From: Phlyctochytrium arcticum
Taxonomy: Eukaryota > Chytridiomycota > Chytridiomycetes > Chytridiales > Chytridiaceae
DNA length: 64,000 bases
NCBI GenBank assembly: GCA_025602905.1
Contig: JAHLKI010000015.1
Location: 186,001 to 250,000 of the forward strand
Reading direction: 5' to 3'
Shown here one piece after another: positions 24,291 to 51,079 of this stretch. Each line of letters opens with the position of its first letter. The stretch's first letter is position 1. Below the pieces are notes generated by a model that searched no databases, was not told the origin of the DNA, and was given only the letters and a program-made list of their open reading frames with translations. The position numbers were made by a program, and so were the translations under genes.

Positions 24291-24358
24291 TGCCACGGTG
24301 CATATTGCCACTGACCACCCACCCGGGTGGGTGGTCAGTGGCAATATGCACCGTGGCA
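24291..24358. repeat. 68-bp perfect end palindrome, left
   Basis: Two perfect 34-bp arms meeting at CCC|GGG (24,324/24,325). It starts TGCCACGGTG and ends CACCGTGGCA. The same palindrome forms the right end (51,012-51,079). Confidence 0.95.
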
Positions 24359-24631
24359 CTGGTTGGCATCTATATGGGCACGCGAGAGCGGAAGCTATAT
24401 ATAGGGGTCAGAATCCTATTGATAGGTTTTTGAACCGTGGCAAAGCGCAGATCTAGCCTGTATTCGGGCAAACTTAGAGTATAGATACAAATTATACTAA
24501 TCCAATCTAAGATCGTGGCAACTATCTATCAATAGGATTCTGACCCGATCCGAGCGGCCACATACTCATTCGACGCTAACTCTAATCTTGACCGAATATC
24601 CGAGCGGCCACATAATCATTCGACGCTAACT

Positions 24632-24961
24632 CTAATCTTCTATCACTATGACGTCATCCGCCGCTGGATCTTCCATCGTCACATTTCTTGTCCAGATTTC
24701 CATTAGTGTCTGGTATGAATCGCGAATATCCATCGGTAATGCCTTCACATCGACGCGGCTTTGTTTCCTGATGCTGAAGGCTAGTTTCTTGGATATTCTG
24801 CCGTCCTTCACTGATAATGAAGTTATATTCTTCTTCTTCATCTCTTGCTTGATATATTCTAACGCTGCGGTGTGCTTCTTGACGACTCTATTCGCCGCAT
24901 CGTATTCTGCTGATATGTCTAGGTTGATAAACTCCAATACTCGCTCCTCCAATCGACTCAT
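24632..24961 (-). CDS. Terminal-repeat-encoded 109-aa protein, left copy
   Basis: An identical copy lies at 50,409-50,738 (plus). The protein is helical and rich in charged residues (RLEERVLEFINLDISAEYDA, KKHTAALEYIKQEMKKKN), with a basic middle (KDGRISKKLAFSIRKQSR) and an acidic tail. A TATATAAAG box (25,027-25,035) lies about 65 bp upstream of the ATG in both copies, so both may be expressed. No family recognised. Location in the terminal repeat means it is present twice per genome, which hints at an end-related or early role, though this is inference. Confidence 0.65.
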   Translation of the reverse strand: MSRLEERVLEFINLDISAEYDAANRVVKKHTAALEYIKQEMKKKNITSLSVKDGRISKKLAFSIRKQSRVDVKALPMDIRDSYQTLMEIWTRNVTMEDPAADDVIVIED

Positions 24962-25026
24962 TGCTCTTTGATGCTATTTGGCGCTAACTTGATTCTAACT
25001 TGATGCAATGTAAGGCAGGTTCGTCG

Positions 25027-25035
25027 CTTTATATA
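25027..25035 (-). promoter_or_regulatory. TATA box of the terminal-repeat gene, left
   Basis: TATATAAAG on the minus strand, mirrored at 50,335-50,343, placed about 65 bp before the ATG. Confidence 0.55.
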
Positions 25036-25164
25036 CTCGCGATTGTATCGATACCTTTTCTTTGTATGGATAGGAAAGAACCAATCGAATCTCTCGCCGC
25101 TTATTCGCTCCTAAGGTACCCATCTACATGTCGCTACTTGTCGCTACTTGTCGATTTACTTTTA

Positions 25165-25240
25165 GCAAAAAAAGGAAAAAATACCACAAACGTAATAAAC
25201 GTTTAAGTGTGTTTTACTTTTGTGGAAAAATTTCCTTTTT
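25165..25240. repeat. Imperfect inverted repeat inside the terminal repeat
   Basis: AAAAAAGGAAAAAATACCAC pairs with GTGGAAAAATTTCCTTTTTT around AACGTAATAAACGTT, itself palindromic. Mirrored at about 50,130-50,205. It could be a replication or packaging signal or a terminator. Confidence 0.5.
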
Positions 25241-25449
25241 TCAAATTGCTGAATATGAGGAAGTGTGTAGGAGTGAGAGATCAAAGACCCTCACCGCATC
25301 AAAACGCAACGGGAATGAAATATTCACTTTTCAGGATCTACCCCTATCATCTCGATACGGATACTACTCTTTCGTGATTCTTTCGCTATTCTTTATTGAT
25401 TCGGGCATGCATTTTTTTTCATTGCAGTGTTTTTAATACACAATGAACA

Positions 25450-25893
25450 ATGAACCTGTTGGACACTTTACCTTTTGAGGTAATATTAGATATTTCTGAA
25501 TATTTGGATACCGATGACTACTTGTCACTTGCAAGCATGTATCGTATTAATCCTGTATGTGAAATTTGCCAGAGATTGAAAAATGAGAAATGGGCAAAGG
25601 TTACATATCCGGTTGAAGGTAATAAAATTGATGGCGATAAAAACAAAAAGTATTGGCATGAAGAAATTATAACTATTCACTTAAGGTATCAAAATGCGTA
25701 TGTGTGTAGTATGTCATACCAATATACATTTGAACCATACTGGGGAAGAAGGGAATATCTGCATTACCATTGGCATTGGAGAGGAAGAAATTTTCGTACA
25801 GAAAAATATGATTATTTTGTATATAGGCGTGAAAGGAAACGCAAACCTTTTATATGGCACCTCATAGATCGATACCCGAAACTCGATACATAA
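25450..25893 (+). CDS. Viral F-box protein
   Basis: A 147-aa protein starting 42 bp inside the left terminal repeat boundary. Residues about 4-30 (LDTLPFEVILDISEYLDTDD followed by YLSLASM) match an F-box, the SKP1-binding motif of SCF ubiquitin ligases. The remainder is rich in Tyr/Trp/His and basic residues (REYLHYHWHWRGRNFR) with no substrate-binding repeat that I recognise. F-box proteins are known in large eukaryotic DNA viruses, where they redirect host ubiquitination. In this element it would be an accessory host-interaction factor. It is followed by the receiver gene on the same strand after 36 bp. Confidence 0.65.
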   Translation: MNLLDTLPFEVILDISEYLDTDDYLSLASMYRINPVCEICQRLKNEKWAKVTYPVEGNKIDGDKNKKYWHEEIITIHLRYQNAYVCSMSYQYTFEPYWGRREYLHYHWHWRGRNFRTEKYDYFVYRRERKRKPFIWHLIDRYPKLDT

Positions 25894-25929
25894 GAAATTT
25901 TCGCCTCTAATAGTAAAACACGCCATGTA

Positions 25930-26340
25930 ATGATATTAGTAGTCGACGACAACCCAATGACACGCAAAATCATGAAGAAAATGATTGGGAAACTCACGGA
26001 CGAGTATGTACTTCTTTCAGGAACAATGTTGTTATTCGATGTGTTAACATATAATTACGATGACGTGACATTTATTTTTACTGATCTCCAACTCATGGAA
26101 GAAGAATTGAGCCGTTGTGTTTCTGATATTTTGACTTACAAAGAAGAAGGTCTTTGTCTTATAAATTGGATCAGAGAATTTGAGAAGACGAATATGGTAG
26201 AGGATGGAATCAAGATAGTAGCGTTTTCATCGGACGCATCATTGAAGCACAAGGCACTGGCTGTTGGGGCAGACATGTTCTATAGTAAACCAATCACGAA
26301 ACAGATATTGATGGATATTCTGAAAAAACCAGAATCATAG
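25930..26340 (+). CDS. Stand-alone response-regulator receiver protein
   Basis: A 136-aa protein that is essentially one REC domain. The acidic pair is D6-D7 (MILVVDDNP), the phospho-acceptor D52 (FIFTDLQLM), the Thr/Ser position S100-S101 (IVAFSSDAS) and the conserved Lys K120 (FYSKPI). All catalytic positions of a phosphorylatable receiver are present. There is no output domain, as in CheY- or Spo0F-like shuttles. An insertion-like helix-rich stretch lies between D52 and the following strand. In fungi such domains sit in phosphorelays upstream of the HOG pathway; a viral copy could draw off or mimic phosphotransfer. That role is inference. Confidence 0.85.
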   Translation: MILVVDDNPMTRKIMKKMIGKLTDEYVLLSGTMLLFDVLTYNYDDVTFIFTDLQLMEEELSRCVSDILTYKEEGLCLINWIREFEKTNMVEDGIKIVAFSSDASLKHKALAVGADMFYSKPITKQILMDILKKPES

Positions 26341-26393: not shown

Positions 26394-26735
26394 ATGTGCT
26401 ATTTATGTCCTGAATTAAGGGCTATAGAGATTACATCGAAGAGCGGCGAAACGGCATATATGTTACGACTGCCTATATCGACCGAAGCACAATTGACAGA
26501 TATAGCTATTTCTTTAAGAGGAAAAGATTTGTATGTTTGCGTACCGAGGACCCCATGTAATCGACCATTATTCGAGAAGATTATCACCATTTCAAGTATG
26601 CTTCATCCCAGGGTCAATAAGAAACTAAGACGGGAATTCTTGCAGTCAGGGTGGTTGAATGTCAGTGAAAGTAAAGTTGCACTTGGATGCAACAAGAAAA
26701 CATTTATTGAATACTTTGAAGTAATCTATTCCTAG
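26394..26735 (+). CDS. Unrecognised 113-aa viral protein
   Basis: Compact mixed alpha/beta ORF: ELRAIEITSKSGETAYMLRL near the start, and HPRVNKKLRREFLQSGWLNV then ALGCNKKTFIEYFEVIYS at the end, which looks helix-turn-helix-like. It is the third plus-strand gene in a row after the F-box and receiver genes, 53 bp downstream, and its stop overlaps the stop of the convergent fiber gene by 4 bp. Function unknown. Confidence 0.55.
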   Translation: MCYLCPELRAIEITSKSGETAYMLRLPISTEAQLTDIAISLRGKDLYVCVPRTPCNRPLFEKIITISSMLHPRVNKKLRREFLQSGWLNVSESKVALGCNKKTFIEYFEVIYS

Positions 26736-29700
26736 TATTCGAGCATCTGCAAGTCGATGCGAGCATTACCATCAAAGCCTAAATTACTACCTGTCCATGT
26801 CAAAGTGAAGGTGTGTGCTCCAATAGAAAGCCCTGTAGTAATGAATGACAGTGGGAATCGCAAAATCTGACCTGTATATCTCCAGAACAAATATATAGTT
26901 TTGACAACATTACCATCAATTCTAAGAGAGACATCTATACCGTAATTATCCGAATTGGCGTACAAGGCGATACTGCCTGTAAACATTTGGACAGTTCGTG
27001 TCGTTGTAAAAGCCTTGGAGAAACCACTTGGAATACCTGTTTGTCCTGTTCCTGCATTATCCCAAATATTCACAGCAACAGGTCGTGTTAACAAACCCTG
27101 GCCATCTAGATATAATCCCGAATCTGCTTTGATGTACATCATATTTTGGTATGGAGCCGCCGTTGACGTATTACCCACACCTATGTAACCGGAGACAGTA
27201 GCATTGTTGTTCTCGAATTGAATAGTGGAGTAACCACTAGCATGTCGATTTTTGACTTTGAGAGTATTACCCACGAGATTTGCTTGTATGACATTTTGGG
27301 TTACTGAATTAAACCCGAAGTCGACCTGAGATTGGCTATGGATCAACCCGGCACCACCGATTGGGCCTAAGGATAAAGTCAACGTATTGGAATACCAGCC
27401 AATGAAGCGGTGGTTCGTAGGGGTGTCAAAGAAATGCAGATCCCCTCTTTCATGTACAGGTGTACAATTTATATACATGTTGCCCAAGTTAATTTGGCTA
27501 AAACCTGTATTCGGAATCTTCAGATACGTCCCATTAATCGTAATGTCTCCAGTCGTTGTCAAACTTGGTAGCGTTGGTGTTGCACCAGACAAACTTGTAA
27601 GATTCGCATGAAGCGGTTGTTTGCTACCAAGAGATGTTGTCAGTGAAGTCCCTGCGACAAAAATATCTGTACCTACATATAATTTCTTTGCTATTCCAGC
27701 CCCACCAGCTACAGTAAAAGCACCAGATGTTGTACTTGTAGAGTCTGTTGCAGTATTGATAGCAATCTGACCGTCGGATCGTAACTGGAGAATATGAGAC
27801 GCCAGAGTAAAATTGTAGAATCCCAATGATCCATTTGGTAAACCTCCTGTTCCAGCAGAACCGGCATGATACAGACCCCATTGCGTGCTTGATGATGCAT
27901 TATTCATAAGGAGAATACTGTTACCCGAAACAGCAGACAACGACGCGTTAATAACCAACGCATTAGGCTGGTTGCCTGCTCCCAAATTCAAAGTCAAAAG
28001 TTTTGAAGTAAAGGAAGTGTCATATCCAGTCAGTTTTGTTTCAATTGGTGCAAGACGAGTATTGTAGTCTGAAGTCAGAACATAATTCGGAACGTTTGAT
28101 ATTCTTGAAAAGGCCAGTTGTCCAATCGATTCTGAAGTTGACAAGTCTACATTATTCTTCAAGGCTAATGAACCGAGTGTCGGTTTACCTGCCAATGTAT
28201 CCCATTCAATACCTAAAGTAAATTTTACATCATCAGAATTATCAGTTGTAATCAAAGGCTGAAGTGTCGAAGTATTTACCTTACTGATTGGGATAATACC
28301 AGTTACCTCGGTTGTTGAAAGGTCGATACTATTTTTTAAAGCAAGTGAACCAAGAGTAGGCCGACCGACTAGCGTATCCCATTCGATGCCTAGAGTTTGT
28401 CTAATCTCGTCTTTGTTATAATCTGCTATTAAAGGTTGAAGTTCAGAAGTATCAATTTTACTAATTGGTAGAATACCGGTTACCTCGGTTGTTGAAAGGT
28501 CGATAGAATTCTTCAAGGACAACGAACCGAATACTGGCTTACCTGTGACATTCCCCCAATCAATATTACCGCTAGATGCAGTACTCGATAATCCCAAAGT
28601 TGTCTTGAATGATGCTGCATTTCCCGAGGTGATCAAAGGTTGAAGTGTACTTGTATCAATTTTACTAATTGGGAGAATACCGGTGACTAGTGAAGTCGAC
28701 AAGTCGATTGTGTCAAGATTTGATAATGCTTTCAACTGACCTATGCGTGTCTCAATGGGTGTAAAGCGGTTGTCTATCGCAGTTTGTCTCGTATTGTAGG
28801 TCGATGTCAATGTGTAATTTGAGAGGGGGATTGCACTGATTGATGTATTTACGAAAGATTCTGTTGCAACCTTTAAAGTCTTTGTAAATATATCATCAGT
28901 GGCATAAAGTTTTTTGCTGACCGTTACAGCACTTGTTCCCAATCGCATCAATTCTTGTAATGTTCCGCTCGACCCTGTTGAAGCAGAAATAACCATTGAC
29001 GAGCCATAAGTTCCATCATCTATTGTAGAAATTTGACTCGTAACTTTCCCATTCAATGGAGCAAACTTAATACTTTCTGTGGCATTACTGTCTTGAACAA
29101 GAGACAAATTGTCTAAATATTTCGCTGCTCCAAATCCTCCGCTCTGACCATAAATCACAAGTGTTATATTCGTGGATAGAGGGACATTGCTCGAAGCATT
29201 TGTCCAACTCGTTACCAGAATATTATTGACATAGAGAAATGCGGTATCGTAAACGACCTTCATCCTTACCGTTGCAAAAACGTCTCGAGGCAATGATGCA
29301 GCGACTTCTTTGTATGTTCCGTCTGGAGTATGCAAGCGAGTGTAGTTAAAATATCCGGAAAACGATGCTGCATAACCACCACAGTTTATTGTAATACCCT
29401 CATCTTGCCGAAAGGAAGAATATAGCAGATCACATTGAACCGTCCAGTATCTTCCTAGATTCGGGATTGTATAGGCAATGTTCCCATTGGAATACGTTTG
29501 GTTGTTTTGTTGAAGAATTACATATTTGTTTGTAGTGTCATAAGTTGCATTCCCGGACAACGTACCTGTCGGAGTGCTTGTGAAATTATCCGTAAGAATA
29601 GTAGTTGTAGTATTATCAACACCAATTAGGGAAATTGCATCTTTGATGAGATTTTGCTTCAAAGTAATGGCTGAATCAATAGCAGTTTGTCGTGTATCGT

Positions 29701-32398
29701 AAATGCTCTGGGAAACCTTTGTTGCAATTGAAGCATCAATGGCAATTTGTCGCGTATCATAAACAGATTGCGACACTTTTGAAGCAAGTCCGCTTGTTAA
29801 TGATATATTCAAAGCATATACACTCAAATCAGGTGCGCCAGATACGTTGGCATATGGTAGTTTGTTATTTGAATCTATTACATTTTGTTTCAATGCAAGT
29901 CCGCTTGTTAATGATGTATTCAAGGCATAAGGTGTCAAATCTGGTGTACCACTCACAAGACTATATGGTAATTTTGCAGAACTTGTAATGAGATCCTGTT
30001 TCAACGCGAGATTCGGAATATTCGACAAAAAACCGTAATCGAGACGATTCGATGCTGATATTATATTCTGTTTTGTGGCGATTGAAGAGTTGATGTTTCC
30101 CAAGTCTATATTCCGATTTAGAAAAACAGACAAATCAGGCGGTGTTGAAATATTCGAATATGGAATTTTGTTGGTACTAGTGATCTTTGGTTGATAATTG
30201 GTTGCAATATCGGTTTCAACACCTTCAATTACGGAATTTACAATTTCTAGATTTTGTATAATTGGATCAATCAATTGACTCACGAGGCTCACGGTACTAG
30301 GCTGAATTATTTGGGAGTCATACTGGCGCAACATGTCTAAATTCACCGCTTGTTGTGGGTATTCAGTAGCAATACCTAACCATCCACATTGAGGCGGCGT
30401 ATCGAAGAGCAACCTTGTGACATCGCAGCCGTTTGAATCAGGTAGAGTCACGGTTATGACATTACTACCTGGCTTCATTTGAATATTGCCGTTTGAATCC
30501 AATATGGGATTTCCATTCACATCCTCCTCGCGTTTCCTTTCTCTCCCTAGAATAGTGATGAATCCGGCACCAAGGCCGGTAAGGGCACCGCCTAGCATTC
30601 CAGAGCCTATGGCAGAAATAGCCGAACTAGCTGACCCTATTACACTACCACCCGCGCCAAATAAACCATTTAATGGCCCTACAATACCGCTCAAACCTCC
30701 ACTGACTGAAACGACCTCGCCTCCTCCCGATTTCAGGACTTGATTCGCACCTTCTCCTGTTTGCTCTTGAATGGGATCTTCAGCTGTTCTTTCTGTTTTG
30801 AAAGTGTCTATGGTTGAAATTGTATAACCGATGCCAGGGGAACCAACCAATATCACGCCACTACCTGCCGTCAAGGAAAATGAATTAGAGATTGTCTTTC
30901 CCGCTACCGTAATCCCATTACCACCAACATATGGTGATTCATCAGGTGCCTCGTATTCATAGGAACAGGAGATGGTGTTGCCAGTGATCTGAATATTATT
31001 TCCTGCTTGGTAGTCGCCTTGGAACGTATTTCCTATACGCTTGACTCCATTAGACGCTGACAAATTTTCTTCAATGTGAGTCTTGGTGCTATCCATTTGA
31101 AGCCCACCTGATACTGTAAGATCCAGACTGACCTCATGTGAGGAATTCTGATAAAGACCATTGCTGAAAGAGAGCCCGGATGAAATCTTACCTTGAGAAT
31201 CGACTCGTATAGACGAGTTGTCTACCAAGGGACTTGGGTTTACTGAAAGATTCATATTCGTGTCAACCGCTAAACTCGCATCAGTATTCAATTCAACTAT
31301 TTGGTCTCGAATCACAACTGCTCCACTCCCCTGGTACACACCCTTCACGTATTCGGCAGTTGTTGCCTCATAGTCACTTGGATTGCTATTTGGTGATAGA
31401 TTCACATGTCCCACACTAAGTTCATTCAGTGTCTCTGAATACGTAAAGTCACTAGTTCTATTCAAACCTGCAATCCCGTTGTCATAAGGAATCTGCCCTA
31501 ATCCCTGACTTCTAAACGCCAGCTTGTTACCCGTCTGCTGAAAATTTTCATGGTCCACCTCGAGTTTGACAAGTGATCCGTCAATGGATTCGGTAATATC
31601 TCGATATACTGATATGGCGCCGGCTCCCTTGAGACTCTTGGAAACATCCTGTGTTTTTGCTTTTAATTTGTTATAATCTACTTCAAGTGTATCTTCATCA
31701 ATTCGTAAGGAGACTTGACCGTCGATTTCATCTAATGGGTATTCGAATACCAACTTGTCGGGAATAAGAGCCTTCAACTTTCCACCGTCTATATCCATGG
31801 TATCATCATCAATCTTGAGTGACAATTTGTGACTATTTAGAACATTGTAATAGAACGGATCAGAGATTTTGAGACTCAACCCTTTTGCAAATAGATTCAA
31901 ATCACCGTCAAGTATAGATTCTGCGTCTTCCATATGAGATGCATACCTTAATTCAATTTCATCGTCGTCATTGTAGAAGAGCGGACTGTTCAATTCAGGT
32001 GGATCCTGTTTCTTGGCTGCTAATTGATTTTCATCGTTAATAAATAATGAATCATTGTCATACTGAAGAGACACCTGATGGTCGTCGCTTGAATACTGAA
32101 GAGGTAGACGAACGTCTGCCTCAATGGTTGAAAGATTTCCTTCGGAATCTAGAACGAGACGACTATCATCGTAAGCAAGAGAGACGTGTGCGTTACCCTG
32201 TGTCAGAGTGGTTTCAATTGGCGCTTCTGAGGATAAAGAGTTTATTTTAAGTATTCCATGTTTATTCTTAACAGTGGCGACATCGATACTGGAATATTCG
32301 TCTCCTTTCAATTCGCCGCTTATGAAGCTGTTTTGAATATTTGTATTGTCAAGGGTGCGAATACCCGAGGCATTGCGCGAGTTAATACCTGACATCAC
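26732..32398 (-). CDS. Giant fiber-like attachment protein, 1,888 aa
   Basis: By far the largest gene of the element. N-terminal ~500 residues: short repeats alternating hydrophobic and polar residues (HVSLAYDDSRLVLDSEGNL, VSLQYDNDSLFINDENQLAA), like shaft repeats of adenovirus-type fibers. At about 560-640 there is a Gly-rich hydrophobic segment (GAGGSVIGSASSAISAIGS, GALTGLGAGFITILG). Then come trimer-like stalk repeats (SIATKQNIISASNRLDYG, LALKQN...LPY), a LamG/concanavalin-like domain (about 960-1130), more stalk repeats (GILPISKIDTSTLQPL, DWGNVTGKPVFG), and a distinct C-terminal beta-rich head (last ~130 residues). The probable role is host-cell attachment. A relative lies outside the element at 14.19-16.58 kb. 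Confidence 0.8.
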   Translation of the reverse strand: MMSGINSRNASGIRTLDNTNIQNSFISGELKGDEYSSIDVATVKNKHGILKINSLSSEAPIETTLTQGNAHVSLAYDDSRLVLDSEGNLSTIEADVRLPLQYSSDDHQVSLQYDNDSLFINDENQLAAKKQDPPELNSPLFYNDDDEIELRYASHMEDAESILDGDLNLFAKGLSLKISDPFYYNVLNSHKLSLKIDDDTMDIDGGKLKALIPDKLVFEYPLDEIDGQVSLRIDEDTLEVDYNKLKAKTQDVSKSLKGAGAISVYRDITESIDGSLVKLEVDHENFQQTGNKLAFRSQGLGQIPYDNGIAGLNRTSDFTYSETLNELSVGHVNLSPNSNPSDYEATTAEYVKGVYQGSGAVVIRDQIVELNTDASLAVDTNMNLSVNPSPLVDNSSIRVDSQGKISSGLSFSNGLYQNSSHEVSLDLTVSGGLQMDSTKTHIEENLSASNGVKRIGNTFQGDYQAGNNIQITGNTISCSYEYEAPDESPYVGGNGITVAGKTISNSFSLTAGSGVILVGSPGIGYTISTIDTFKTERTAEDPIQEQTGEGANQVLKSGGGEVVSVSGGLSGIVGPLNGLFGAGGSVIGSASSAISAIGSGMLGGALTGLGAGFITILGRERKREEDVNGNPILDSNGNIQMKPGSNVITVTLPDSNGCDVTRLLFDTPPQCGWLGIATEYPQQAVNLDMLRQYDSQIIQPSTVSLVSQLIDPIIQNLEIVNSVIEGVETDIATNYQPKITSTNKIPYSNISTPPDLSVFLNRNIDLGNINSSIATKQNIISASNRLDYGFLSNIPNLALKQDLITSSAKLPYSLVSGTPDLTPYALNTSLTSGLALKQNVIDSNNKLPYANVSGAPDLSVYALNISLTSGLASKVSQSVYDTRQIAIDASIATKVSQSIYDTRQTAIDSAITLKQNLIKDAISLIGVDNTTTTILTDNFTSTPTGTLSGNATYDTTNKYVILQQNNQTYSNGNIAYTIPNLGRYWTVQCDLLYSSFRQDEGITINCGGYAASFSGYFNYTRLHTPDGTYKEVAASLPRDVFATVRMKVVYDTAFLYVNNILVTSWTNASSNVPLSTNITLVIYGQSGGFGAAKYLDNLSLVQDSNATESIKFAPLNGKVTSQISTIDDGTYGSSMVISASTGSSGTLQELMRLGTSAVTVSKKLYATDDIFTKTLKVATESFVNTSISAIPLSNYTLTSTYNTRQTAIDNRFTPIETRIGQLKALSNLDTIDLSTSLVTGILPISKIDTSTLQPLITSGNAASFKTTLGLSSTASSGNIDWGNVTGKPVFGSLSLKNSIDLSTTEVTGILPISKIDTSELQPLIADYNKDEIRQTLGIEWDTLVGRPTLGSLALKNSIDLSTTEVTGIIPISKVNTSTLQPLITTDNSDDVKFTLGIEWDTLAGKPTLGSLALKNNVDLSTSESIGQLAFSRISNVPNYVLTSDYNTRLAPIETKLTGYDTSFTSKLLTLNLGAGNQPNALVINASLSAVSGNSILLMNNASSSTQWGLYHAGSAGTGGLPNGSLGFYNFTLASHILQLRSDGQIAINTATDSTSTTSGAFTVAGGAGIAKKLYVGTDIFVAGTSLTTSLGSKQPLHANLTSLSGATPTLPSLTTTGDITINGTYLKIPNTGFSQINLGNMYINCTPVHERGDLHFFDTPTNHRFIGWYSNTLTLSLGPIGGAGLIHSQSQVDFGFNSVTQNVIQANLVGNTLKVKNRHASGYSTIQFENNNATVSGYIGVGNTSTAAPYQNMMYIKADSGLYLDGQGLLTRPVAVNIWDNAGTGQTGIPSGFSKAFTTTRTVQMFTGSIALYANSDNYGIDVSLRIDGNVVKTIYLFWRYTGQILRFPLSFITTGLSIGAHTFTLTWTGSNLGFDGNARIDLQMLEY

Positions 32399-32439
32399 TA
32401 TTTACTTATAAGAAATCAAATGAAATAAAAGCTCTGTCT

Positions 32440-34230
32440 CTTAACACAATTGCGTTAACAGGCAATAGCGAATCAACGACAAATTTGACATCCATGGTTT
32501 CTCAGATTCGATGGTACTTGGCCGATTGATGGTCTCGGTTGTCGGTCGATCGGAAGATAGAAGACGGCGAAAAGAAGTGAAAAAAAAGAAGCTTTGAGGG
32601 AGTTAGCAATCAGCGAGCAGGCGGAATGTGTTCAGTCAAAGTCAAATGTTCATCGGCCACGCCGCAAAGTATTGCCTCCCGACGTCCAGAAGCCCCAGCA
32701 GGCATAACGTGCCCCGATAGATACCGCTGTGCGCTCAGAAGAAGGTACGACCAAGCGACCCCAACTCACTCCAACTCTAAGCACCTCTCGTCCCCGTAAA
32801 CACAGCAACCATCCAGTTTCATCGGCGAACCAGCAAGCAGCTGCTCCAGCAGGACGAGAGATGCGAATACCCATCCTGCTCCCTCATTCAGCGTCGGTGG
32901 GCCAGGCACTTCCCGAAAAGACACCAGGCCCCAGCAGGTCCTTCAACGAAGCCCCTCGATAGATACCCGGCGTCCGTTCCTAGATAAAGTACACATCCCA
33001 CTCATACGTCCACATCTTTGAATGAGATCGCGGGACAGTTCCTGCGGTGCCCGGAGATACCGTCACTATCAGCTTCCAAGCGCCGTAGGCCGCAGCGAGC
33101 ACTTTTACGTGCCCCGTGAGATGCCACAGGAACCAAAGATGAAGCAGCGGGCAACAGCCCCAGCAGAACCGCAGGCAAGAAACAGACCTAAGCTAGCCAA
33201 CGCACACCCACCTTTTTCGCAGTCTGTGTTGCGCGCCAAGCTGTCCAGCTCCGGAAAACAAGAGTCAGAGCAAGAATCCCGCGAATCCGGGGCAAGATTG
33301 TATGGCCCGTGTCTGCAGCAGCGCGACGCGAGGCAAGCAGGGGGAATGTGGATGCTATAGTAACAAGGGAGGCACAGCACACTATCACTCATACCCTCAG
33401 ACCTTCCCACGCAAAAATCTTACGCATCTTCCAGTTCGAGAGCTCGACATGTCCTGCACTTCAAAAACTGCGAGATTTCAGGCGTATGACTTTGTCAGCA
33501 CTCTATCAGCTGCAGCGACTCTCCCCCCCCAAACTGACGACTTCTGGAAGAATCTGATTCAACATATCGGCCAAAACCCAAACCTCTACACCGAACGCGT
33601 ATCCTGTTCCTGCCCTCGGTCCAGAACAACGATTCTCGATCTTGACCACCTTGCGTCTGATATTCAAGGTTCCATTCAGCATCGCGTCACTGGCCTGGAT
33701 TTGTCAAAAGCTGGCCCCATTTTTATGAATGCCGCCGCCAGGCTGATAGCATCTGCACACAACCTACCCATTGCCAGAGTCGAATCAAGGACAAAAGGAG
33801 AGAAGACACGCGCCGTGTTCCACTGGGACTTCGCCCAGGATGCTGTCAATTTCACCAAAAGCTTCGTAGAGAGAAAGAAGTATGGGAAGGCAGAGAAGTT
33901 CTTCCAAACCAATCCCTGGATTGGCGGACCTGAGGCCCAAAACCAAGGAAACCCATCAGCGACATCTACCGCATCAGCCCCATCTGGCTCTTTGATCCGC
34001 ACCACCCCGACCACCGCAAGTAACTTGGCTATCACCCCCGCAGCAACTGCAGTACTTCTCAAGGCAAAATATCCTCATGTTGAAGAATGGAGACTGGCGA
34101 GTCTGGCTGACTCCATGCACACAGTGGGGAGGGAGGCGGCCAAAGATGTGTTCAAGACCATCTTTGGTGGAGATGTTTAGCGTAGTGCACGCATGTATAT
34201 ATGTACAAAAATATTTTCAATTAGGATCTG
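32440..34230. other. GC-richer, host-looking island inside the element
   Basis: Base use changes visibly from the AT-rich viral DNA on both sides. 32,600-33,400 has repeated motifs such as GATAGATACC, CCCCAGCAGG and CAGCAGG and no supported gene, followed by an ORF at 33,449-34,180 with host-like codon use. This suggests a captured host segment or a nested element. No flanking duplication was identified. Confidence 0.5.
33449..34180 (+). CDS. Unrecognised protein in the GC-rich island
   Basis: A 243-aa ORF from ATG 33,449; the frame is open from 33,302, so an earlier start is possible. It begins SCTSKTARFQAYDFVSTLS and contains ERVSCSCPRSRTTILDLDHL, a basic stretch (VESRTKGEKTRAVFHWDF), a Thr/Ala/Ser-rich linker and a helical end (EEWRLASLADSMHTVGREAA). 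No domain recognised. Codon and base use differ from the viral genes around it, so it may be a captured host gene carried as cargo or part of an old retroelement. Confidence 0.5.
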   Translation: MSCTSKTARFQAYDFVSTLSAAATLPPQTDDFWKNLIQHIGQNPNLYTERVSCSCPRSRTTILDLDHLASDIQGSIQHRVTGLDLSKAGPIFMNAAARLIASAHNLPIARVESRTKGEKTRAVFHWDFAQDAVNFTKSFVERKKYGKAEKFFQTNPWIGGPEAQNQGNPSATSTASAPSGSLIRTTPTTASNLAITPAATAVLLKAKYPHVEEWRLASLADSMHTVGREAAKDVFKTIFGGDV

Positions 34231-41243: not shown

Positions 41244-41359
41244 TTTAGCGTCATATTGTATCACTAGTTTCGCATTGTATCGATAGTATTGATGTGCATA
41301 AATAGCTGCGTTTCGGTTAAAGTTTCGGTTAAAAATAATAAGTTACTTTATATTATAAA

Positions 41360-42796: not shown

Positions 42797-44064
42797 TTAG
42801 AGTGTTCTCTCTCATAGTCGTCTATCTCATCTTGAAATCCGTCCTCTATTAGATTCTCTCGAGGCTCGTATGAATTAGACTCTTCAGAATATCCTTTCCA
42901 TTGCACCAAGTAAAACACTTTTCGTCTAGTCAATTTCTTGTGTAAGATAGCTTCCACTTCATATCTTTCAATGCCATCATCTTCATCTTCTTCATCAGCT
43001 TCTTCTTCATTTTCTTGTTGTACAGTAGCTGCTGGTTCAGGTAATACATTCTCTACTTCATTGACTTTCCGTAGCATATATGCAGGATAAAGACCATACA
43101 TGTCCACTCCTGACGAGTTCTGAATCTTGTAAGCATCTTGATACGAGGGACGTGTGGATTTGATAATTTTGCTTATAGTAAAAACCTCTTTGCTGAAATA
43201 ACCCTTCTTACTCCTTTTCTCGATCTTGCTGATCTGCGTTAACTTCCTAACCTTGTCCCCAACTTTAATATCAACCACTAACTTTGATCCCCTCCCTTTA
43301 GTCCTTGCTACTAATTGTTTCTGATAAGCTGCTTCTGGATTATCTAGAATTTGTTGAGTGGTCATATTGCCACTACCAAAGTGAATAGCACTAGTATTCA
43401 GATTCTCGACAATTTTGGGAAGAGCGCTAACCCAGTTTGAATCACCGAGCTGAATACTTTTGAACAAAACGTTTTTAAGTGAGCCATTGACCCTTTCTAC
43501 ATGCGATGAAGACTGCGGTCTGCCAGGACGGCTGAAAGTCCACTGAATACCATTCTCTTCTGCCCACGTCTGCACCAAATTCTGGAACTCAGATCCGTTA
43601 TCCGAGTTCACATAGACCAGCTCGACCCCGTCCTCTAGCACATCGTCTAAGAAATCTCGAACTTCTTGCTGAGTATTCGCCTTTAGAGCTTTTGAATACA
43701 GTTTTTTACTAAAGATATCGATTAAATTCACAATATAATTAAAACCATTATACGAATGCGACCTCATATTGACAGTATCGATTTGAAACGTCCCAGGCTT
43801 CGAGGACAGGATCGGCCTTATAGATCCTTTAGACCCCACAGGGCGAGTGGTTCGCTGCCAAATATCCTGCTTTTTCAAAAATTTCAATACAGCTCTTTGA
43901 CTGATCTTTGAGTCAGGATAGCGTTGACGGTAAGCATAATATAATCGGTCACGACCATATAGATTTTTGTCGGTGTAATAAAACTCTTTCAATTGACGGG
44001 CATCTTCATCTGTTAGCTCTTTCGAATATTGCAATAACCTAGATTTAATGACAGGTTCTGCCAT
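42793..44064 (-). CDS. DDE retroviral-type integrase with chromodomain
   Basis: 423 aa. The rve catalytic triad is visible: Asp in FQIDTVNM (about 96), Asp in YVNSDNGSEFQ (about 155) and Glu in SSSHVERVNGSLKN (about 190). An N-terminal helical region (LKEFYYTDKNLYGRDRLYYA) stands in place of an HHCC zinc finger. A C-terminal chromodomain (about 368-415, YEVEAILHKKLTRRKVFYLV then QWKGYSEESNSYEP) is typical of Polinton and chromovirus integrases and may steer insertion to particular chromatin. The element's TG...CA ends and 5-bp target duplication are what such an enzyme would leave. Confidence 0.92.
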   Translation of the reverse strand: MAEPVIKSRLLQYSKELTDEDARQLKEFYYTDKNLYGRDRLYYAYRQRYPDSKISQRAVLKFLKKQDIWQRTTRPVGSKGSIRPILSSKPGTFQIDTVNMRSHSYNGFNYIVNLIDIFSKKLYSKALKANTQQEVRDFLDDVLEDGVELVYVNSDNGSEFQNLVQTWAEENGIQWTFSRPGRPQSSSHVERVNGSLKNVLFKSIQLGDSNWVSALPKIVENLNTSAIHFGSGNMTTQQILDNPEAAYQKQLVARTKGRGSKLVVDIKVGDKVRKLTQISKIEKRSKKGYFSKEVFTISKIIKSTRPSYQDAYKIQNSSGVDMYGLYPAYMLRKVNEVENVLPEPAATVQQENEEEADEEDEDDGIERYEVEAILHKKLTRRKVFYLVQWKGYSEESNSYEPRENLIEDGFQDEIDDYEREHSN

Positions 44065-45681: not shown

Positions 45682-46050
45682 TTGAAATCTTATTTAAAAT
45701 TTTACTCTGTTATAGGTAAACTCTCCCATTATACGAATATGAGCTTCGGCAAGTTCTTAACCAATGGCCGGAAAAATCTCAAGACGTTTTGGAATAACGC
45801 TCCCTCTCATTTAAAAAGTGCACGCGGTTTCGCTGCAAGTGCTGTCGGGTTCGCTAACAGAGGAAGCAAACTGATACAAGGAGTGAATAAGTCAATCCAG
45901 GAAAGCCCAGAACTTTTCAACGAGAAGGTTCGATCAACAGCGGATGACCTAACCAACAAGACGGGAAAAGGCGTCAAGAAACTAAGTGATCTTCATGCCT
46001 CAAGTGACAAGTTTGTGGATCGACTAAGTACGAATTTAAGCGGTGACTAG
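45682..46050 (+). CDS. Small basic amphipathic protein, possible core or membrane-active virion protein
   Basis: 122 aa from 45,682, or about 103 aa from the internal ATG at 45,739 (SFGKFLTNGRKNLKTFWNN), which looks the better start. A basic N-terminal region is followed by amphipathic helices (LKSARGFAASAVGFANRGSK, KVRSTADDLTNKTGKGVKKL). Small proteins of this kind beside the ATPase and penton in adintoviruses and adenoviruses are virion core or membrane-lytic proteins; here this is analogy. It overlaps the convergent ATPase gene by 4 bp at the stop. Confidence 0.5.
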   Translation: MKSYLKFYSVIGKLSHYTNMSFGKFLTNGRKNLKTFWNNAPSHLKSARGFAASAVGFANRGSKLIQGVNKSIQESPELFNEKVRSTADDLTNKTGKGVKKLSDLHASSDKFVDRLSTNLSGD

Positions 46051-46757
46051 AAATAGTCTTTGAATGTGTTATTCTCGCAATACTTGTATATATCTTTAGC
46101 TGTATTCTTTGATAGATCAATGAGACAAAATGAATATGGTGTCCTAGTACAATCAATCAAATATTCAAGCACCTCCTTTTTACTCGCGTGAGAGGTCACG
46201 AGCGTCTCTGATAACGTCTGAAAATCGTTCTGGTTGTTTTTGAATATAATCCATTCTGTACTGCATCCTTTTTGTTTTCCTGAAAGCTGACTCTTAATTG
46301 ATTGACAACATACTATGATACTAATATTGTAATGACGACCCTTCGTATATAATAAATCAAGTTTTTTTGCCAATTCTTTTGATCTAGCACCATCAGCAGC
46401 ATCGTCTATGAAGAGTAGTATTCTATCCTCACAATCATTCTCCTGTTGGTATTTCACGATAGCTGAAATACTATCATTTGAGACTTCATCATTGAAATAA
46501 ACATTTTTATGCTTCGTTGTCTTGGCAAATTGTTGAATACACGTGTCATAACGAACGGTGTCTGACATAATGATAACCTTGTCGAATACTCTGGCGTATA
46601 CATCTTGAATCAAACCCATGGCCAAGCCAGTCTTACCAGATTTACGTGGCGCACATAAAGTGCACGCTAGGGGATGTGAGGGGATCGGCTCAGGGACGCG
46701 AGGATCCCTTTCAATAGCTTTCGGATTGTATATGGGCTTTACCTTGTACGTCGTCAT
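46047..46757 (-). CDS. FtsK/HerA-type genome packaging ATPase
   Basis: 236 aa. Walker A APRKSGKT (36-43), Walker B ILLFIDDA (113-120), then VCCQS (about 160, sensor-like Gln). This is the A32-like ATPase that pumps DNA into the capsid in Polintons, virophages, adenoviruses-like elements and large DNA viruses. Length is usual for the family. It is divergent from the penton gene across a 33-bp spacer, so the two share a compact bidirectional promoter. Confidence 0.9.
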   Translation of the reverse strand: MTTYKVKPIYNPKAIERDPRVPEPIPSHPLACTLCAPRKSGKTGLAMGLIQDVYARVFDKVIIMSDTVRYDTCIQQFAKTTKHKNVYFNDEVSNDSISAIVKYQQENDCEDRILLFIDDAADGARSKELAKKLDLLYTKGRHYNISIIVCCQSIKSQLSGKQKGCSTEWIIFKNNQNDFQTLSETLVTSHASKKEVLEYLIDCTRTPYSFCLIDLSKNTAKDIYKYCENNTFKDYF

Positions 46758-47538: not shown

Positions 47539-48000
47539 ATGTCGGACCATAACGAAAATGAGCTACCAATCGAGCCTGAGCAACCCATTGAAGAAGAAGT
47601 TGAACAAGAAATTGAACAACCCGTTGAACAAGAACCTTCACTTCCACCTGAACCAATTCAAGAAGTGAAGAAAAAGAAACAAACAGAGAATATGATCAAA
47701 GCGCAAAAAGAACGAACTCGACAATTAAGAGAGATGCAGCAGAAACGAGATGAAGAGAAACGTATTCAAGATGAACGAAAACGCGTTCAAGATGCCTATG
47801 ATTTGGTGAATGAATTAGAAGAGAAAAAGAGACAAGAAAAGCAACAAAAGAAAGAAGAAAGAGCGCGTAAAAAAGCGGAACGTTCTTCAACAGCGAATAC
47901 CAAAAAGAAGGCTGTTGTTCCAAAGAAACCAGTTAGTACAAGAAAAGCAACACCTGTTCCACAATATTCAAATGATGAATTTGGTGGAATTTTCGGATAA
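47539..48000 (+). CDS. Glu/Lys-rich coiled-coil protein
   Basis: 153 aa. An acidic Pro/Glu N-terminus (EQPIEEEVEQEIEQPVEQEP), then a long charged coiled coil (AQKERTRQLREMQQKRDEEK, EEKKRQEKQQKKEERARKKA) and a short tail (PQYSNDEFGGIFG). It could be a capsid scaffold or internal virion protein given its place between penton and major capsid genes (28 and 47 bp away). Function not known. Confidence 0.6.
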   Translation: MSDHNENELPIEPEQPIEEEVEQEIEQPVEQEPSLPPEPIQEVKKKKQTENMIKAQKERTRQLREMQQKRDEEKRIQDERKRVQDAYDLVNELEEKKRQEKQQKKEERARKKAERSSTANTKKKAVVPKKPVSTRKATPVPQYSNDEFGGIFG

Positions 48001-48047: not shown

Positions 48048-49292
48048 ATGTCAGAAGTACCAAAGAATTGGTTGGTTTCTTCTAATCGCTTTGCCCAGCC
48101 GTATTCCAATCCTCGCCTTGAATCAATTAATAAATGGTACCCCATCGGGCAAGATGTTTTTACGTCCAAGAATCGACAAGCAGCACCTATTAAAATCTCG
48201 TTGCACGATGCATCTCGATCCCTTCAATTGCAGAATCTTCTTTTAAATTTCAAAGTTCAAATATTCAAAAATGGGCAACCAGTTTCAGGGAATACGATCA
48301 TCAACAGCAGTATCGGTTTAGAGGGTTTGATTCAATCGGTACGAGTCTGTATCGGCTCAAAGGAATTGCAGAAAATCGACAATTATCCTAAATACCTCAA
48401 GACTGTCTATAAGTATCTACCAAAGACGCAAAAGACGTTCTTGAAGTCACTCAGTGGCTACGGAGTTAAAAATATTTTTGAGTCGAGCAGCGTGGCTGGA
48501 TGTTCTACACATATGCCAATCGGTGTACACCACCCGGATAATGACTCTTTGTTTCATGTGTGGGGCCTCCCCAATCAAACGCTAGATTACTACATAACAC
48601 TGCGCGATCCTGCTCTAGTATTCTTAAACAATACTGTTGATGAAGTGAAATTCAATGAAACTTCTATCATGGTACCGACGTTTCAGCCTCCCCCCGAGTT
48701 CCAATTGGCGGTACAGCGTTCGATTGCGGCTGGTAAAGAATTATTCTATGACTACACTCGATATTCCACTCAAGAGTTGGCTTGTAACGGTTCTACCCGT
48801 CAAACTTACCGTATTCACATGAATGGTGTTCGAAGTTTAAAGGCCTTTGATTTCAGTTTCGTAGATGAAGACCTTCTTGCTAACCCAGCACTCGATAAGA
48901 ACGAAATATCCTCTTCAAAAGGGTTGAAAGAGTGGTTCATTCAGATCGGTAACCTTGTCACGCCTAATGGTACTACTGGATTTTTGAACGGTCCTGCCAA
49001 TCCAGAAACACTGCTCATTTCGCAGATTAAAGGCAACTACCTGTCAGCAGTAGGTGAAATGGATTTACCCTCACTGACTGACTACCAGAACAAGGACTTT
49101 AGCGCGGGTTTTTCATACCAAAGTATTGATGAATCTTCTAGTGCGGCCTTGTCATTTGTTAATACTGACAGTATTATGGAAATCACAACTATCCATGAAG
49201 CAGGACAACAGCCTTCTACAAACTGTCGCATGGAATTCCAGTATTCTGAGAACGTCACACTCTCAATCAGTACACTAGTCGATGTGATCTAG
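48048..49292 (+). CDS. Major capsid protein, probable double jelly-roll
   Basis: 414 aa. Opening SSNRFAQPYSNPRLESINKW, then a strand-turn pattern (LQNLLLNFKVQIFKNGQPVS, SIGLEGLIQSVRVCIGSKEL), a mid-protein LFHVWGLPNQTLDYYITLRD, and a second jelly-roll half with RIHMNGVRSLKAFDFSF and a late RMEFQYSENVTLSISTLVDV. Length, order of segments and position after penton and ATPase fit the major capsid protein of polinton-like viruses. A structure prediction would settle the fold. It is not broken. Confidence 0.8.
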   Translation: MSEVPKNWLVSSNRFAQPYSNPRLESINKWYPIGQDVFTSKNRQAAPIKISLHDASRSLQLQNLLLNFKVQIFKNGQPVSGNTIINSSIGLEGLIQSVRVCIGSKELQKIDNYPKYLKTVYKYLPKTQKTFLKSLSGYGVKNIFESSSVAGCSTHMPIGVHHPDNDSLFHVWGLPNQTLDYYITLRDPALVFLNNTVDEVKFNETSIMVPTFQPPPEFQLAVQRSIAAGKELFYDYTRYSTQELACNGSTRQTYRIHMNGVRSLKAFDFSFVDEDLLANPALDKNEISSSKGLKEWFIQIGNLVTPNGTTGFLNGPANPETLLISQIKGNYLSAVGEMDLPSLTDYQNKDFSAGFSYQSIDESSSAALSFVNTDSIMEITTIHEAGQQPSTNCRMEFQYSENVTLSISTLVDVI

Positions 49293-49339
49293 ACGAACAA
49301 TTGAATATTTAAAAAAAAACATAAAGATAAGAAATAAAA

Positions 49340-49411
49340 GCCGGCTGTAGTGTAAAGGTTATCATAAGGTTTCTTCGCATTCCCGATGCAGGGTTCGACT
49401 CCCTGCCGGCC
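49340..49411 (+). tRNA. tRNA-like sequence, non-canonical
   Basis: A 72-nt stretch with a B-box/T-arm (CAGGGTTCGACTCCCTG), an A-box-like TAGTGTAAAGG as in eukaryotic tRNA-Glu, and self-complementary GCCGGC at both ends. The acceptor stem pairs only six bases, overlapping the T-stem by one, and no normal anticodon stem forms; a GCAT/ATGC hairpin lies there instead. Probably a decayed or divergent tRNA, or a tRNA-like RNA. It is 47 bp after the major capsid stop. Confidence 0.4.
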
Positions 49412-49508
49412 GAAAATAACAGACTTTGAAATATAAAAGCTTCAATTAATGCAATGTATGATGCATGGTGCGTTTGCGTTTGCAATCCAAGTTTTAAAAA
49501 CATGAAGA

Positions 49509-49961
49509 ATGTTAAACAAGAAAATGTTAGGATTTGACACAGAAAAATGCTCATTAAAACGAATAGAACCTGATGATAACGGAGTTTTCCATGTCGTCTC
49601 TATGTCAGAATACGCGATGTTGACATCTTTGTATCTAGATGGATTGCCTGACAACGATTTGAAGAATATAGATGTTGTACTTGAATTTACAAGAGGAGAC
49701 AACCACTTGGAAATATTCAGAGTGCCATACAAAAACCTAAAGAGACATGGTATTTCGTACATGTCAGATCTGTTTCCAGTATTCTGTACAAATGAAAACC
49801 ACCTGAAAATCAGTTTCTTTACTGGAGATAAAATGGTGACACCGAAACAGATATTCTTCATTGTGTGTCACGCAAATCCAAGTGATCTAATAAGAGTGAC
49901 GATGCTACGGAACCATGTTTTCAAGATCACGCTAGCAGGTCAAGACTTGCGTATATATTAA
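49509..49961 (+). CDS. Unrecognised 150-aa viral protein
   Basis: Mixed alpha/beta ORF (EKCSLKRIEPDDNGVFHVVS, DVVLEFTRGDNHLEIFRVPY, MVTPKQIFFIVCHANPSDLI). The stop lies exactly at the inner edge of the right terminal repeat (49,962). Predicted beta content suggests it may be structural, such as a single jelly-roll or cement protein; this is a guess from position next to the capsid block. Confidence 0.55.
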   Translation: MLNKKMLGFDTEKCSLKRIEPDDNGVFHVVSMSEYAMLTSLYLDGLPDNDLKNIDVVLEFTRGDNHLEIFRVPYKNLKRHGISYMSDLFPVFCTNENHLKISFFTGDKMVTPKQIFFIVCHANPSDLIRVTMLRNHVFKITLAGQDLRIY

Positions 49962-50334
49962 ATGCCCGAATCAATAAAGAATAGCGAAAGAATCACGAAA
50001 GAGTAGTATCCGTATCGAGATGATAGGGGTAGATCCTGAAAAGTGAATATTTCATTCCCGTTGCGTTTTGATGCGGTGAGGGTCTTTGATCTCTCACTCC
50101 TACACACTTCCTCATATTCAGCAATTTGAAAAAAGGAAATTTTTCCACAAAAGTAAAACACACTTAAACGTTTATTACGTTTGTGGTATTTTTTCCTTTT
50201 TTTGCTAAAAGTAAATCGACAAGTAGCGACAAGTAGCGACATGTAGATGGGTACCTTAGGAGCGAATAAGCGGCGAGAGATTCGATTGGTTCTTTCCTAT
50301 CCATACAAAGAAAAGGTATCGATACAATCGCGAG

Positions 50335-50343
50335 TATATAAAG
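50335..50343 (+). promoter_or_regulatory. TATA box of the terminal-repeat gene, right
   Basis: TATATAAAG, 66 bp upstream of the ATG at 50,409; mirror of 25,027-25,035. Confidence 0.6.
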
Positions 50344-50408
50344 CGACGAACCTGCCTTACATTGCATCAAGTTAGAATCAAGTTAGCGCCAAATAGCATC
50401 AAAGAGCA

Positions 50409-50738
50409 ATGAGTCGATTGGAGGAGCGAGTATTGGAGTTTATCAACCTAGACATATCAGCAGAATACGATGCGGCGAATAGAGTCGTCAAGAAGCACAC
50501 CGCAGCGTTAGAATATATCAAGCAAGAGATGAAGAAGAAGAATATAACTTCATTATCAGTGAAGGACGGCAGAATATCCAAGAAACTAGCCTTCAGCATC
50601 AGGAAACAAAGCCGCGTCGATGTGAAGGCATTACCGATGGATATTCGCGATTCATACCAGACACTAATGGAAATCTGGACAAGAAATGTGACGATGGAAG
50701 ATCCAGCGGCGGATGACGTCATAGTGATAGAAGATTAG
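50409..50738 (+). CDS. Terminal-repeat-encoded 109-aa protein, right copy
   Basis: Identical to the product of 24,632-24,961; see that entry for sequence features. Both copies point outward from the element toward the palindromes, with the same TATA box. Confidence 0.65.
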   Translation: MSRLEERVLEFINLDISAEYDAANRVVKKHTAALEYIKQEMKKKNITSLSVKDGRISKKLAFSIRKQSRVDVKALPMDIRDSYQTLMEIWTRNVTMEDPAADDVIVIED

Positions 50739-51011
50739 AGTTAGCGTCGAATGATTATGTGGCCGCTCGGATATTCGGTCAAGATTAGAGTTAGCGTCGA
50801 ATGAGTATGTGGCCGCTCGGATCGGGTCAGAATCCTATTGATAGATAGTTGCCACGATCTTAGATTGGATTAGTATAATTTGTATCTATACTCTAAGTTT
50901 GCCCGAATACAGGCTAGATCTGCGCTTTGCCACGGTTCAAAAACCTATCAATAGGATTCTGACCCCTATATATAGCTTCCGCTCTCGCGTGCCCATATAG
51001 ATGCCAACCAG

Positions 51012-51079
51012 TGCCACGGTGCATATTGCCACTGACCACCCACCCGGGTGGGTGGTCAGTGGCAATATGCACCGTGGCA
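51012..51079. repeat. 68-bp perfect end palindrome, right
   Basis: Same palindrome as 24,291-24,358: 34-bp perfect arms around CCC|GGG, ending ...CACCGTGGCA at 51,079. Confidence 0.95.

What the first reader, a model, noticed from the sequence alone, without database searches (positions are those of the whole stretch)
24291..51079. Apparently intact virus-like element of polinton-like type integrated in a fungal gene
Capsid (48,048), penton (46,791), ATPase (46,047), integrase (42,793), primase-helicase (36,426) and fiber genes are all open, ends are perfect, and the target duplication is clean. This combination in a fungal genome, with a primase-helicase instead of a protein-primed polymerase and with receiver, F-box and Dam-like genes, does not match any element I know in detail. 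It could be a member of a new fungal lineage.
Basis: partly seen in the sequence, partly recalled or inferred. Interest (0 to 1): 0.95.

Follow-up and report, generated by a model that had tools for sequence, protein, structure and literature searches.

The report
Chytrid virus with flipping hairpin ends
A chytrid fungus carries an intact-looking small DNA virus in one of its genes; its ends, and those of relatives in the same genome, are mirror-image sequences whose tips flip over between copies, which points to hairpin ends, a way of finishing DNA known from other viruses but not found described for this group in the searches made here.

The parts
24286..24290 (.). Target site duplication, left copy (GACAT)
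51080..51084 (.). Target site duplication, right copy (GACAT)
24291..25408 (+). Left terminal inverted repeat, 1118 nt, identical to the right one
49962..51079 (-). Right terminal inverted repeat
24291..24358 (.). Left terminal perfect palindrome, 34-bp arms, begins TG at the insertion point
51012..51079 (.). Right terminal perfect palindrome, ends CA at the insertion point
24632..24961 (-). 109-aa ORF inside the left TIR (second copy in the right TIR), 43-44% identical to ORFs of 4 of 5 other elements compared, function unknown
50409..50738 (+). 109-aa ORF, copy in the right TIR
25450..25893 (+). F-box-like ORF, 147 aa (weak match)
25930..26340 (+). Response-regulator receiver domain protein, 136 aa, matched in 4 of 5 other elements compared
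26394..26735 (+). 113-aa ORF, 50-53% identical in 4 of 5 other elements compared
26732..32395 (-). Fibre-like protein, 1887 aa (Av_adeno_fibre)
33302..34180 (+). 292-aa ORF in a G+C-richer stretch, no family
34905..36071 (-). Dam-like DNA methyltransferase, 388 aa
36426..38882 (-). PrimPol-D5 (SF3) primase-helicase, 818 aa
39263..39880 (+). Cysteine-rich 205-aa ORF (zinc-ribbon-like by eye)
41360..42796 (+). Probable tyrosine recombinase with a weak Myb-like C-terminus, 478 aa; R262, K290, R353, H381, Y390 invariant in 4 proteins aligned
42793..44064 (-). Retroviral-type (rve) integrase with chromodomain, 423 aa
44089..45651 (-). 520-aa ORF of the capsid module, function unknown
45739..46050 (+). 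103-aa ORF of the capsid module
46047..46757 (-). A32-type packaging ATPase, 236 aa
46791..47510 (+). Putative penton (minor capsid) protein, 239 aa, by position and conservation only
   Evidence: no profile match
47539..48000 (+). 153-aa ORF of the capsid module
48048..49292 (+). Major capsid protein, double jelly-roll, 414 aa
49509..49961 (+). 150-aa ORF, matched in 1 of 5 other elements compared

Best explanation
It is a recently inserted provirus of a polinton-like virus of chytrid fungi. Outside the chromosome its linear genome most likely ends in foldback hairpins. Replication copies the hairpin into an extended palindromic end (hairpin transfer), which regenerates both arms from one strand and turns the tip over. 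The extended end, 5'-TG...CA-3', is then the substrate that the virus's own rve+chromodomain integrase joins to host DNA, leaving 5-bp duplications. The PrimPol-helicase takes part in DNA synthesis, with no protein-primed polymerase. The tyrosine recombinase, not needed for an rve-type insertion, is the best candidate for resolving or re-closing hairpins. Shown in sequence: fully paired stems, joint differences of both arms, tip inversion (in relatives), 5-bp duplications, gene content; predicted: capsid fold. Inferred: hairpin-ended free genome, order of steps, enzyme roles, virions.
For: 68-nt perfect palindromes at both ends, ending exactly at the insertion point. 29 places in the genome with this pattern, 0 in the reversed-pattern control. 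Of the 22 read, 16 pair throughout and 6 fail only in the innermost one or two pairs. In 8 distinct 68-nt ends, 5 of 34 pairs vary and all 5 vary on both sides; 272 of 272 cells paired; slid controls 27-41%. Tip inversion: the right ends on C45 and C23 differ at 8 of 2872 positions, 5 being the contiguous inverted tip; the left and right palindromes of the C1 element differ by the same 5-nt inversion; the left and right repeats of C26 and C41 differ at 3 of 992 and 2 of 1038 positions, one of each being the complemented centre base. 5-bp duplications in 6 of 6 elements with both ends read. No protein-primed polymerase match inside any of the 9 elements with paired ends. Capsid genes of 6 relatives against this one: dN/dS 0.047-0.092. 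Capsid fold.
Against: No hairpin-ended free DNA or particle has been seen; only integrated copies were read. The tips of the window's own element are symmetric, so flip/flop is shown in relatives, not in it; and the two tips of C23 face the same way. The two ends of one element are not always alike: C18 has palindromes of two types, its repeats only 89% identical, and those of C2 differ by one base in length. No nickase (HUH) or Holliday resolvase was recognised among its ORFs. The tyrosine recombinase is named by motif only; profile comparisons had no power. 7 of 29 ends were not read. The pattern fixes 18 arm bases, so ends broken there were not counted; one truncated end is known (C1:1744784-1744818). 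The element on C4 has the palindromes but no recombinase or integrase match.
Confidence: 0.8

Rival explanations
1. The ends are kept symmetric by selection as a two-fold binding site for the integrase or another dimeric protein, or by gene conversion, with no hairpin intermediate.
For: The outer part is shared by all end types read (the search pattern fixes most of it), as expected of a binding site.
Against: Selection on a site does not need 34 fully paired bases with every difference matched, nor does it turn a 5-nt asymmetric tip over while the rest of 2872 bases stays nearly unchanged.
Confidence: 0.08
2. A telomere resolvase (N15 type) acts on a symmetric joint, here through the tyrosine recombinase, and hairpin transfer plays no part.
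For: A protein with the pattern R-K-R-H-Y is matched in 8 of 9 elements with paired palindromes, one of them broken; phaeoviruses have a telomere resolvase and a palindromic telRL-like site (PMC13236599, passages read).
Against: A resolvase cut at the centre would put the genome end at the tip, but in the 6 elements with both ends read the insertion point lies 30 to 34 bases beyond it; flip/flop of an asymmetric tip is not expected from cutting and rejoining a symmetric joint.
Confidence: 0.12
3. An ordinary Polinton or PLV with protein-primed ends; the palindromes are an accident of one family.
For: Long terminal inverted repeats and rve integrase are usual in Polintons (PMC7805220, passages). 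Other places in the same genome do match protein-primed polymerases.
Against: No such polymerase match in this element or in any of the 9 with paired palindromes; three different palindrome types share the feature.
Confidence: 0.05
4. Assembly artefact (foldback reads) made the palindromes.
For: Foldback chimaeras are known in sequencing data (recalled); one contig that looks like such a case was met in IMG/VR (L057).
Against: 29 places, different host flanks, 5-bp duplications in 6 of 6 elements with both ends read.
Confidence: 0.02

Closest known systems
Integrated PLV of Spizellomyces punctatus and the 'S. punctatus group' (Bellas and Sommaruga 2021, PMC7805220; passages read)
   Same: Chytrid host, integrated PLV; capsid of the same family: SPPG_02195 is 43% identical over its whole length.
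   Different: The words palindrom and hairpin do not occur in that paper (counts); whether that element has such ends could not be tested. 52% of that group have a chitinase; none was recognised here.
Polintons/Mavericks
   Same: rve integrase, terminal inverted repeats, target duplication, double-jelly-roll capsid, A32-type ATPase.
   Different: No protein-primed PolB recognised; PrimPol-helicase and probable tyrosine recombinase instead; 5-bp duplication and TG...CA ends (Polinton 6-bp duplications are recalled, not from a call).
Parvovirus terminal hairpins (rolling-hairpin replication; recalled, and PMC3087758 seen only as a search listing with the start of its abstract)
   Same: Self-complementary ends, tip in two orientations, whole palindrome present in the extended form (recalled).
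   Different: A 27 kb element with dsDNA-virus genes; no HUH nickase recognised.
Poxvirus flip-and-flop hairpin telomeres (PMC8956199, title and start of abstract seen in a search listing)
   Same: Short inverted and complementary hairpin-type ends; the scaffold protein D13 shares the capsid fold.
   Different: Integrates by rve integrase; stems here are fully paired up to the tip; closed ends not shown.
Phaeovirus EVEs with telomere resolvase (PMC13236599, passages read)
   Same: Endogenous dsDNA virus with a palindromic site and a telomere resolvase.
   Different: There the palindrome is internal and a tyrosine recombinase is held to integrate; here palindromes are terminal and insertion is of rve type.

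Membership tests
Polinton-like viruses (PLV) | Double-jelly-roll major capsid protein | tested here: met
Polinton-like viruses (PLV) | A32-type packaging ATPase | tested here: met
   Pox_A32 E 1.5e-7, above cut-off
Polinton-like viruses (PLV) | Minor capsid (penton) protein | tested here: inconclusive
   No profile match; conserved next to the capsid in 4 of 5 elements compared
Polinton-like viruses (PLV) | Primase-helicase and/or tyrosine recombinase instead of the PolB + rve pair | tested here: inconclusive
   PrimPol-D5 met; tyrosine recombinase by motif only; rve is present too, found in a single PLV of the 2015 set (PMC4642659, passages)
S. punctatus group of PLV | Capsid of the group's protein cluster | tested here: inconclusive
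   43% identity to S. punctatus SPPG_02195; that this is the published element's capsid is inferred
Polinton/Maverick | Protein-primed DNA polymerase B together with rve integrase | tested here: not met
   rve present; no PolB match among the 20 ORFs scanned; the 14 PF03175 matches of the genome lie elsewhere
Virophage | Cysteine protease and virophage-type capsid | tested here: inconclusive
   No protease family above its cut-off; UCH_1 at 0.016 on the recombinase and Peptidase_M32 at 0.023 on the ATPase are below theirs; Sputnik and mavirus capsids match by fold at lower Z, 16.4 and 15.3
Terminal-hairpin (flip/flop) replicons | Terminal palindromes whose asymmetric part occurs in two orientations | tested here: met
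   (in relatives; the window's own tips are symmetric)
Terminal-hairpin (flip/flop) replicons | Hairpin or covalently closed ends on the free genome | not testable with these tools
   Only integrated copies are available
Telomere resolvases | Tyrosine-recombinase active site | tested here: inconclusive
   R262, K290, R353, H381, Y390 invariant in 4 proteins of two lineages, H-to-Y spacing 9 as between invariant H416 and Y425 of protelomerases and H333 and Y342 of lambda-type integrases; taken as catalytic by eye; no Pfam recombinase match
Telomere resolvases | Sequence-profile relationship to N15-type protelomerases | tested here: inconclusive
   hhalign probability 1.2% against protelomerases and 0.1% against lambda-type integrases; the control between those two known relatives also failed, 0.3%

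The most novel reading that the evidence does not exclude
A branch of polinton-like viruses has given up protein-primed end replication for hairpin telomeres: the tyrosine recombinase is a eukaryotic-virus telomere resolvase, the PrimPol-helicase copies the hairpins, and the rve integrase inserts the re-opened, palindromic ends, so that a provirus carries a full record of its telomere, flips included.
Probability: 0.35. Interest if true: 0.85.

Novelty: new variant of a known kind. Interest (0 to 1): 0.7.

Why it matters
How viruses of the Polinton/PLV/giant-virus assemblage changed the way they copy their DNA ends is an open question. This genome holds, side by side, capsid genes near protein-primed polymerase matches and elements with a primase-helicase and hairpin-type ends, so the switch could be studied in one fungus. 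The provirus ends keep the telomere sequence and its flip state, which makes the mechanism testable by sequencing. Three searches of the open library (14 of 15, 20 of 105 and 15 of 182 papers listed, judged by title, start of abstract and term counts) showed no description of flip/flop hairpin ends in polinton-like viruses; unlisted papers, subscription papers and preprints were not seen.

Tried and rejected
Capsid, recombinase and primase relatives in IMG/VR by back-translated patterns: none confirmed. Capsid in phage records: none. The palindrome pattern in IMG/VR gave 5 contigs: L053, L055 and L056 pair at 12 of 20, 12 of 34 and 15 of 31; L054 at 16 of 22, repeat-like by eye; L057 at 18 of 22, a contig with phage-like ORFs by eye that folds back at its very end; all taken as chance or artefact. 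Recombinase in the 5.8-billion-protein set: none at E 0.001. PDB by sequence for recombinase, capsid and putative penton: nothing useful. hhalign of the recombinase against protelomerases and integrases: no power, as the control failed. First capsid model, 3 sequences, pLDDT 51: poor, replaced by a 7-sequence model; even so its best BFVD matches included giant-virus capsids. No Rfam family at the gathering score in 24000-51400. Assembly artefact, binding-site selection and ordinary protein-primed Polinton considered and rejected as told under rivals. Not done: a tree of all capsids, because the letters of the more distant lineages were not available.
Full report
WHAT IS THERE. The finding is real at the given coordinates. 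The element runs from 24291 to 51079. Its terminal inverted repeats are 1118 nt long and identical. A 5-bp duplication, GACAT, flanks it. The host flanks joined with one copy of that duplication give a single reading frame, 250 codons before and 203 after the joint. The host frame has only a weak match to DUF6589, so the interrupted gene is not identified. G+C falls from about 46-50% in the 6 kb before the element to about 36-46% inside, with a 47-54% stretch at 32-34 kb.

HOST. The window is contig C15:186001-250000 of a 31.5 Mb assembly of 91 contigs. A protein of Phlyctochytrium arcticum (P0007) is listed on a contig of 1,732,285 bases, the length of contig C3, and it matches locus L010 on C3 at 100% over 207 of 207 residues. 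The host is therefore this chytrid.

A SECOND RECOMBINASE. Pfam sees only a weak Myb-like C-terminus and other sub-threshold matches. In four proteins of two lineages, 41% identical, R262, K290, R353, H381 and Y390 are invariant. The H-to-Y distance of 9 equals that between the invariant H416 and Y425 of protelomerases and H333 and Y342 of lambda-type integrases. I call it a probable tyrosine recombinase on this motif; profile comparisons could not decide, and the control between known relatives failed too.

THE ENDS. Each end of the element is a perfect palindrome of 68 nt with 34-bp arms, and its outer edge is the insertion point; the element begins TG and ends CA. A pattern of two 9-nt arm stretches occurs at 29 places in the genome, 0 in the reversed control. 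By position they form 9 pairs 15.8 to 33 kb apart, plus 11 single ends; for C2, C3 and C18 at least one end was not read in full, so those pairs rest on position. Letters were available for 22 of the 29. In 16 of these every pair matches; in 6 only the innermost one or two pairs do not. Six of the 9 pairs had both ends read and 6 of 6 have 5-bp duplications: C15 GACAT, C41 GACAT, C26 GTAAC, C23 GTTAC, C4 CCGTT, C1 TGCCG (compared by eye).

JOINT DIFFERENCES. I aligned 8 distinct ends of the 68-nt type; the 69-nt end on C29 was left out and the right ends of C15 and C4, identical to their left ends, were not repeated. Of 34 pairs 29 never vary and 5 vary; all 5 vary on both sides and none on one side; 272 of 272 cells pair. 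Shuffled columns gave 95.8% paired cells, and 4 of 500 shuffles reached 5 pairs changed on both sides; slid partners gave 27-41%. The number of pair types is not above the shuffles (480 of 500 reach it), as expected with so few variable columns.

FLIP AND FLOP. Two other end types have asymmetric tips. In the 65-nt type the tip TGGAG, read from outside inward, occurs as such at C1-left, C23-left and C23-right, and as its reverse complement CTCCA at C1-right and C45-right. The C45 and C23 right ends, compared over 2872 positions of element sequence, differ at 8, and 5 of these are the contiguous tip, turned over. In the 61/63-nt type the centre base is T at the left and A at the right end of both C26 and C41, where the long repeats otherwise differ at 2 of 992 and 1 of 1038 positions. 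This is what copying and re-opening a terminal hairpin does. The window's own tips are symmetric and cannot show it. Against uniform ends: the two ends of C18 carry palindromes of two types and repeats 89% identical, and those of C2 differ by one base in length. In a DNA fold the 68-nt end is a 32-bp stem with a 4-nt loop, -44.1 kcal/mol.

HOW IT MOST LIKELY WORKS. Inferred: the free linear genome carries hairpin ends. A nick at the inner edge of the palindrome would give a 3' end that copies the hairpin, making a blunt 68-bp extension that starts TG and ends CA. That is what is found at each insertion point, and retrovirus-type integrases use CA ends (recalled). Insertion by the rve integrase would leave the 5-bp duplications. 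The recombinase is then free for another role, and resolving or closing hairpins is the obvious one; it is matched in 8 of the 9 elements with paired palindromes, in one of these (C2) broken; C4 has neither recombinase nor integrase match. By contrast, of the 7 full-length capsid genes of the 43-46% lineage (C3:260111, C4:889540, C4:909451, C4:1124607, C6:1029850, C17:18081, C23:273767) 6 have an rve match within 3 kb, and none has a recombinase match or a palindrome of this pattern within 30 kb; their ends were not read, so other palindromes are not excluded. Parvovirus-like and poxvirus-like versions of the hairpin cycle are not told apart by these data.

VIRUS-LIKE LIFE. The capsid gene of this element differs from those of 6 relatives with dS 0.46 to 1.0 and dN/dS 0.047 to 0.092; copies with stops and fragments were not included. 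The recombinase gives 0.38 in the two pairs close enough to measure, on few changes. So the capsid at least has been under selection as a protein. The genome has 57 capsid matches, fragments included, from 100% down to 24% identity. Mosaicism is strong: 28415-41353 of the window is 99.6% identical over 12.9 kb to the elements on C18 and C41, whose capsids are only 52% identical to this one.

COMPARISON WITH THE KNOWN. A PLV integrated in Spizellomyces punctatus and a group named after it are in print (PMC7805220, passages). The capsid here is 43% identical to S. punctatus SPPG_02195 and 42-43% to Powellomyces hirtus proteins. So this is a member of, or a close neighbour to, a known fungal PLV group. 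The words 'palindrom' and 'hairpin' do not occur in PMC10120064, PMC10328495 and PMC4642659 (find), nor in PMC7805220 by the counts. Three library searches on such ends in polinton-like viruses (14 of 15, 20 of 105 and 15 of 182 papers listed) showed no paper that describes them, judged by title, start of abstract and counts; terminal hairpins are noted for a giant virus (PMC12747079, passage) and a telomere resolvase for phaeoviruses (PMC13236599, passages). The library lacks most subscription papers and preprints.

VERDICT. Observation confirmed, interpretation partly supported. The element is a PLV of a known fungal kind with an apparently new way of keeping its ends.

Noticed in passing
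window 28415-41353; G000 C18:187169-200108 and C41:128074-148863: A 12.9 kb block with the replication genes and most of the fibre is 99.6% identical to two elements whose capsids are only 52% identical to this one's: recent exchange of modules.
   Followed up: partly
window 26736-28786: The C-terminal part of the fibre gene follows another element (C26, 95.5% identical) than the rest of the gene (C18/C41, 99.6%): exchange within the fibre.
   Followed up: no
G000 C41:137841-148863: Extra tandem copies of a 2.6 kb stretch (window 31584-34203) make this element 33 kb long.
   Followed up: no
window 36184-36320 and 39947-40084: Near-identical direct repeats of about 137 nt flank the PrimPol gene.
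   Followed up: no
G000 C26:364215-401019: By gene positions the C26 element (370323-395460) seems to sit inside a Polinton-type element with ATPase and capsid matches on one side and rve and PolB matches on the other.
   Followed up: no
G000 C1:1308257-1324039: A 15.8 kb element with palindromic ends, recombinase, integrase and capsid module but no primase or fibre match, and a stop in each of the capsid and penton frames: a non-autonomous or decaying form.
   Followed up: partly
G000 C1:1324571-1343380 and C40:8384-30903: Places with inverted capsid genes at both ends, on C1 inside a 6 kb inverted repeat 99.97% identical.
   Followed up: no
G000 C25, C54, C7, C3:282466: Protein-primed polymerase matches lie within about 10 kb of capsid matches of the most distant lineage (26-28% identity), so both replication types seem to live in one genome.
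   Followed up: partly
window 24548-24639 and 50731-50822: A 42-nt motif is repeated twice inside each terminal repeat, 50 nt apart, perhaps a binding site.
   Followed up: no
G000 C1:1743892-1744543: A 652-nt imperfect palindrome (92%) beside a truncated element end.
   Followed up: no
G000 C18:177965-203194: The two ends of this element carry palindromes of two different types, as if it were a recombinant.
   Followed up: no
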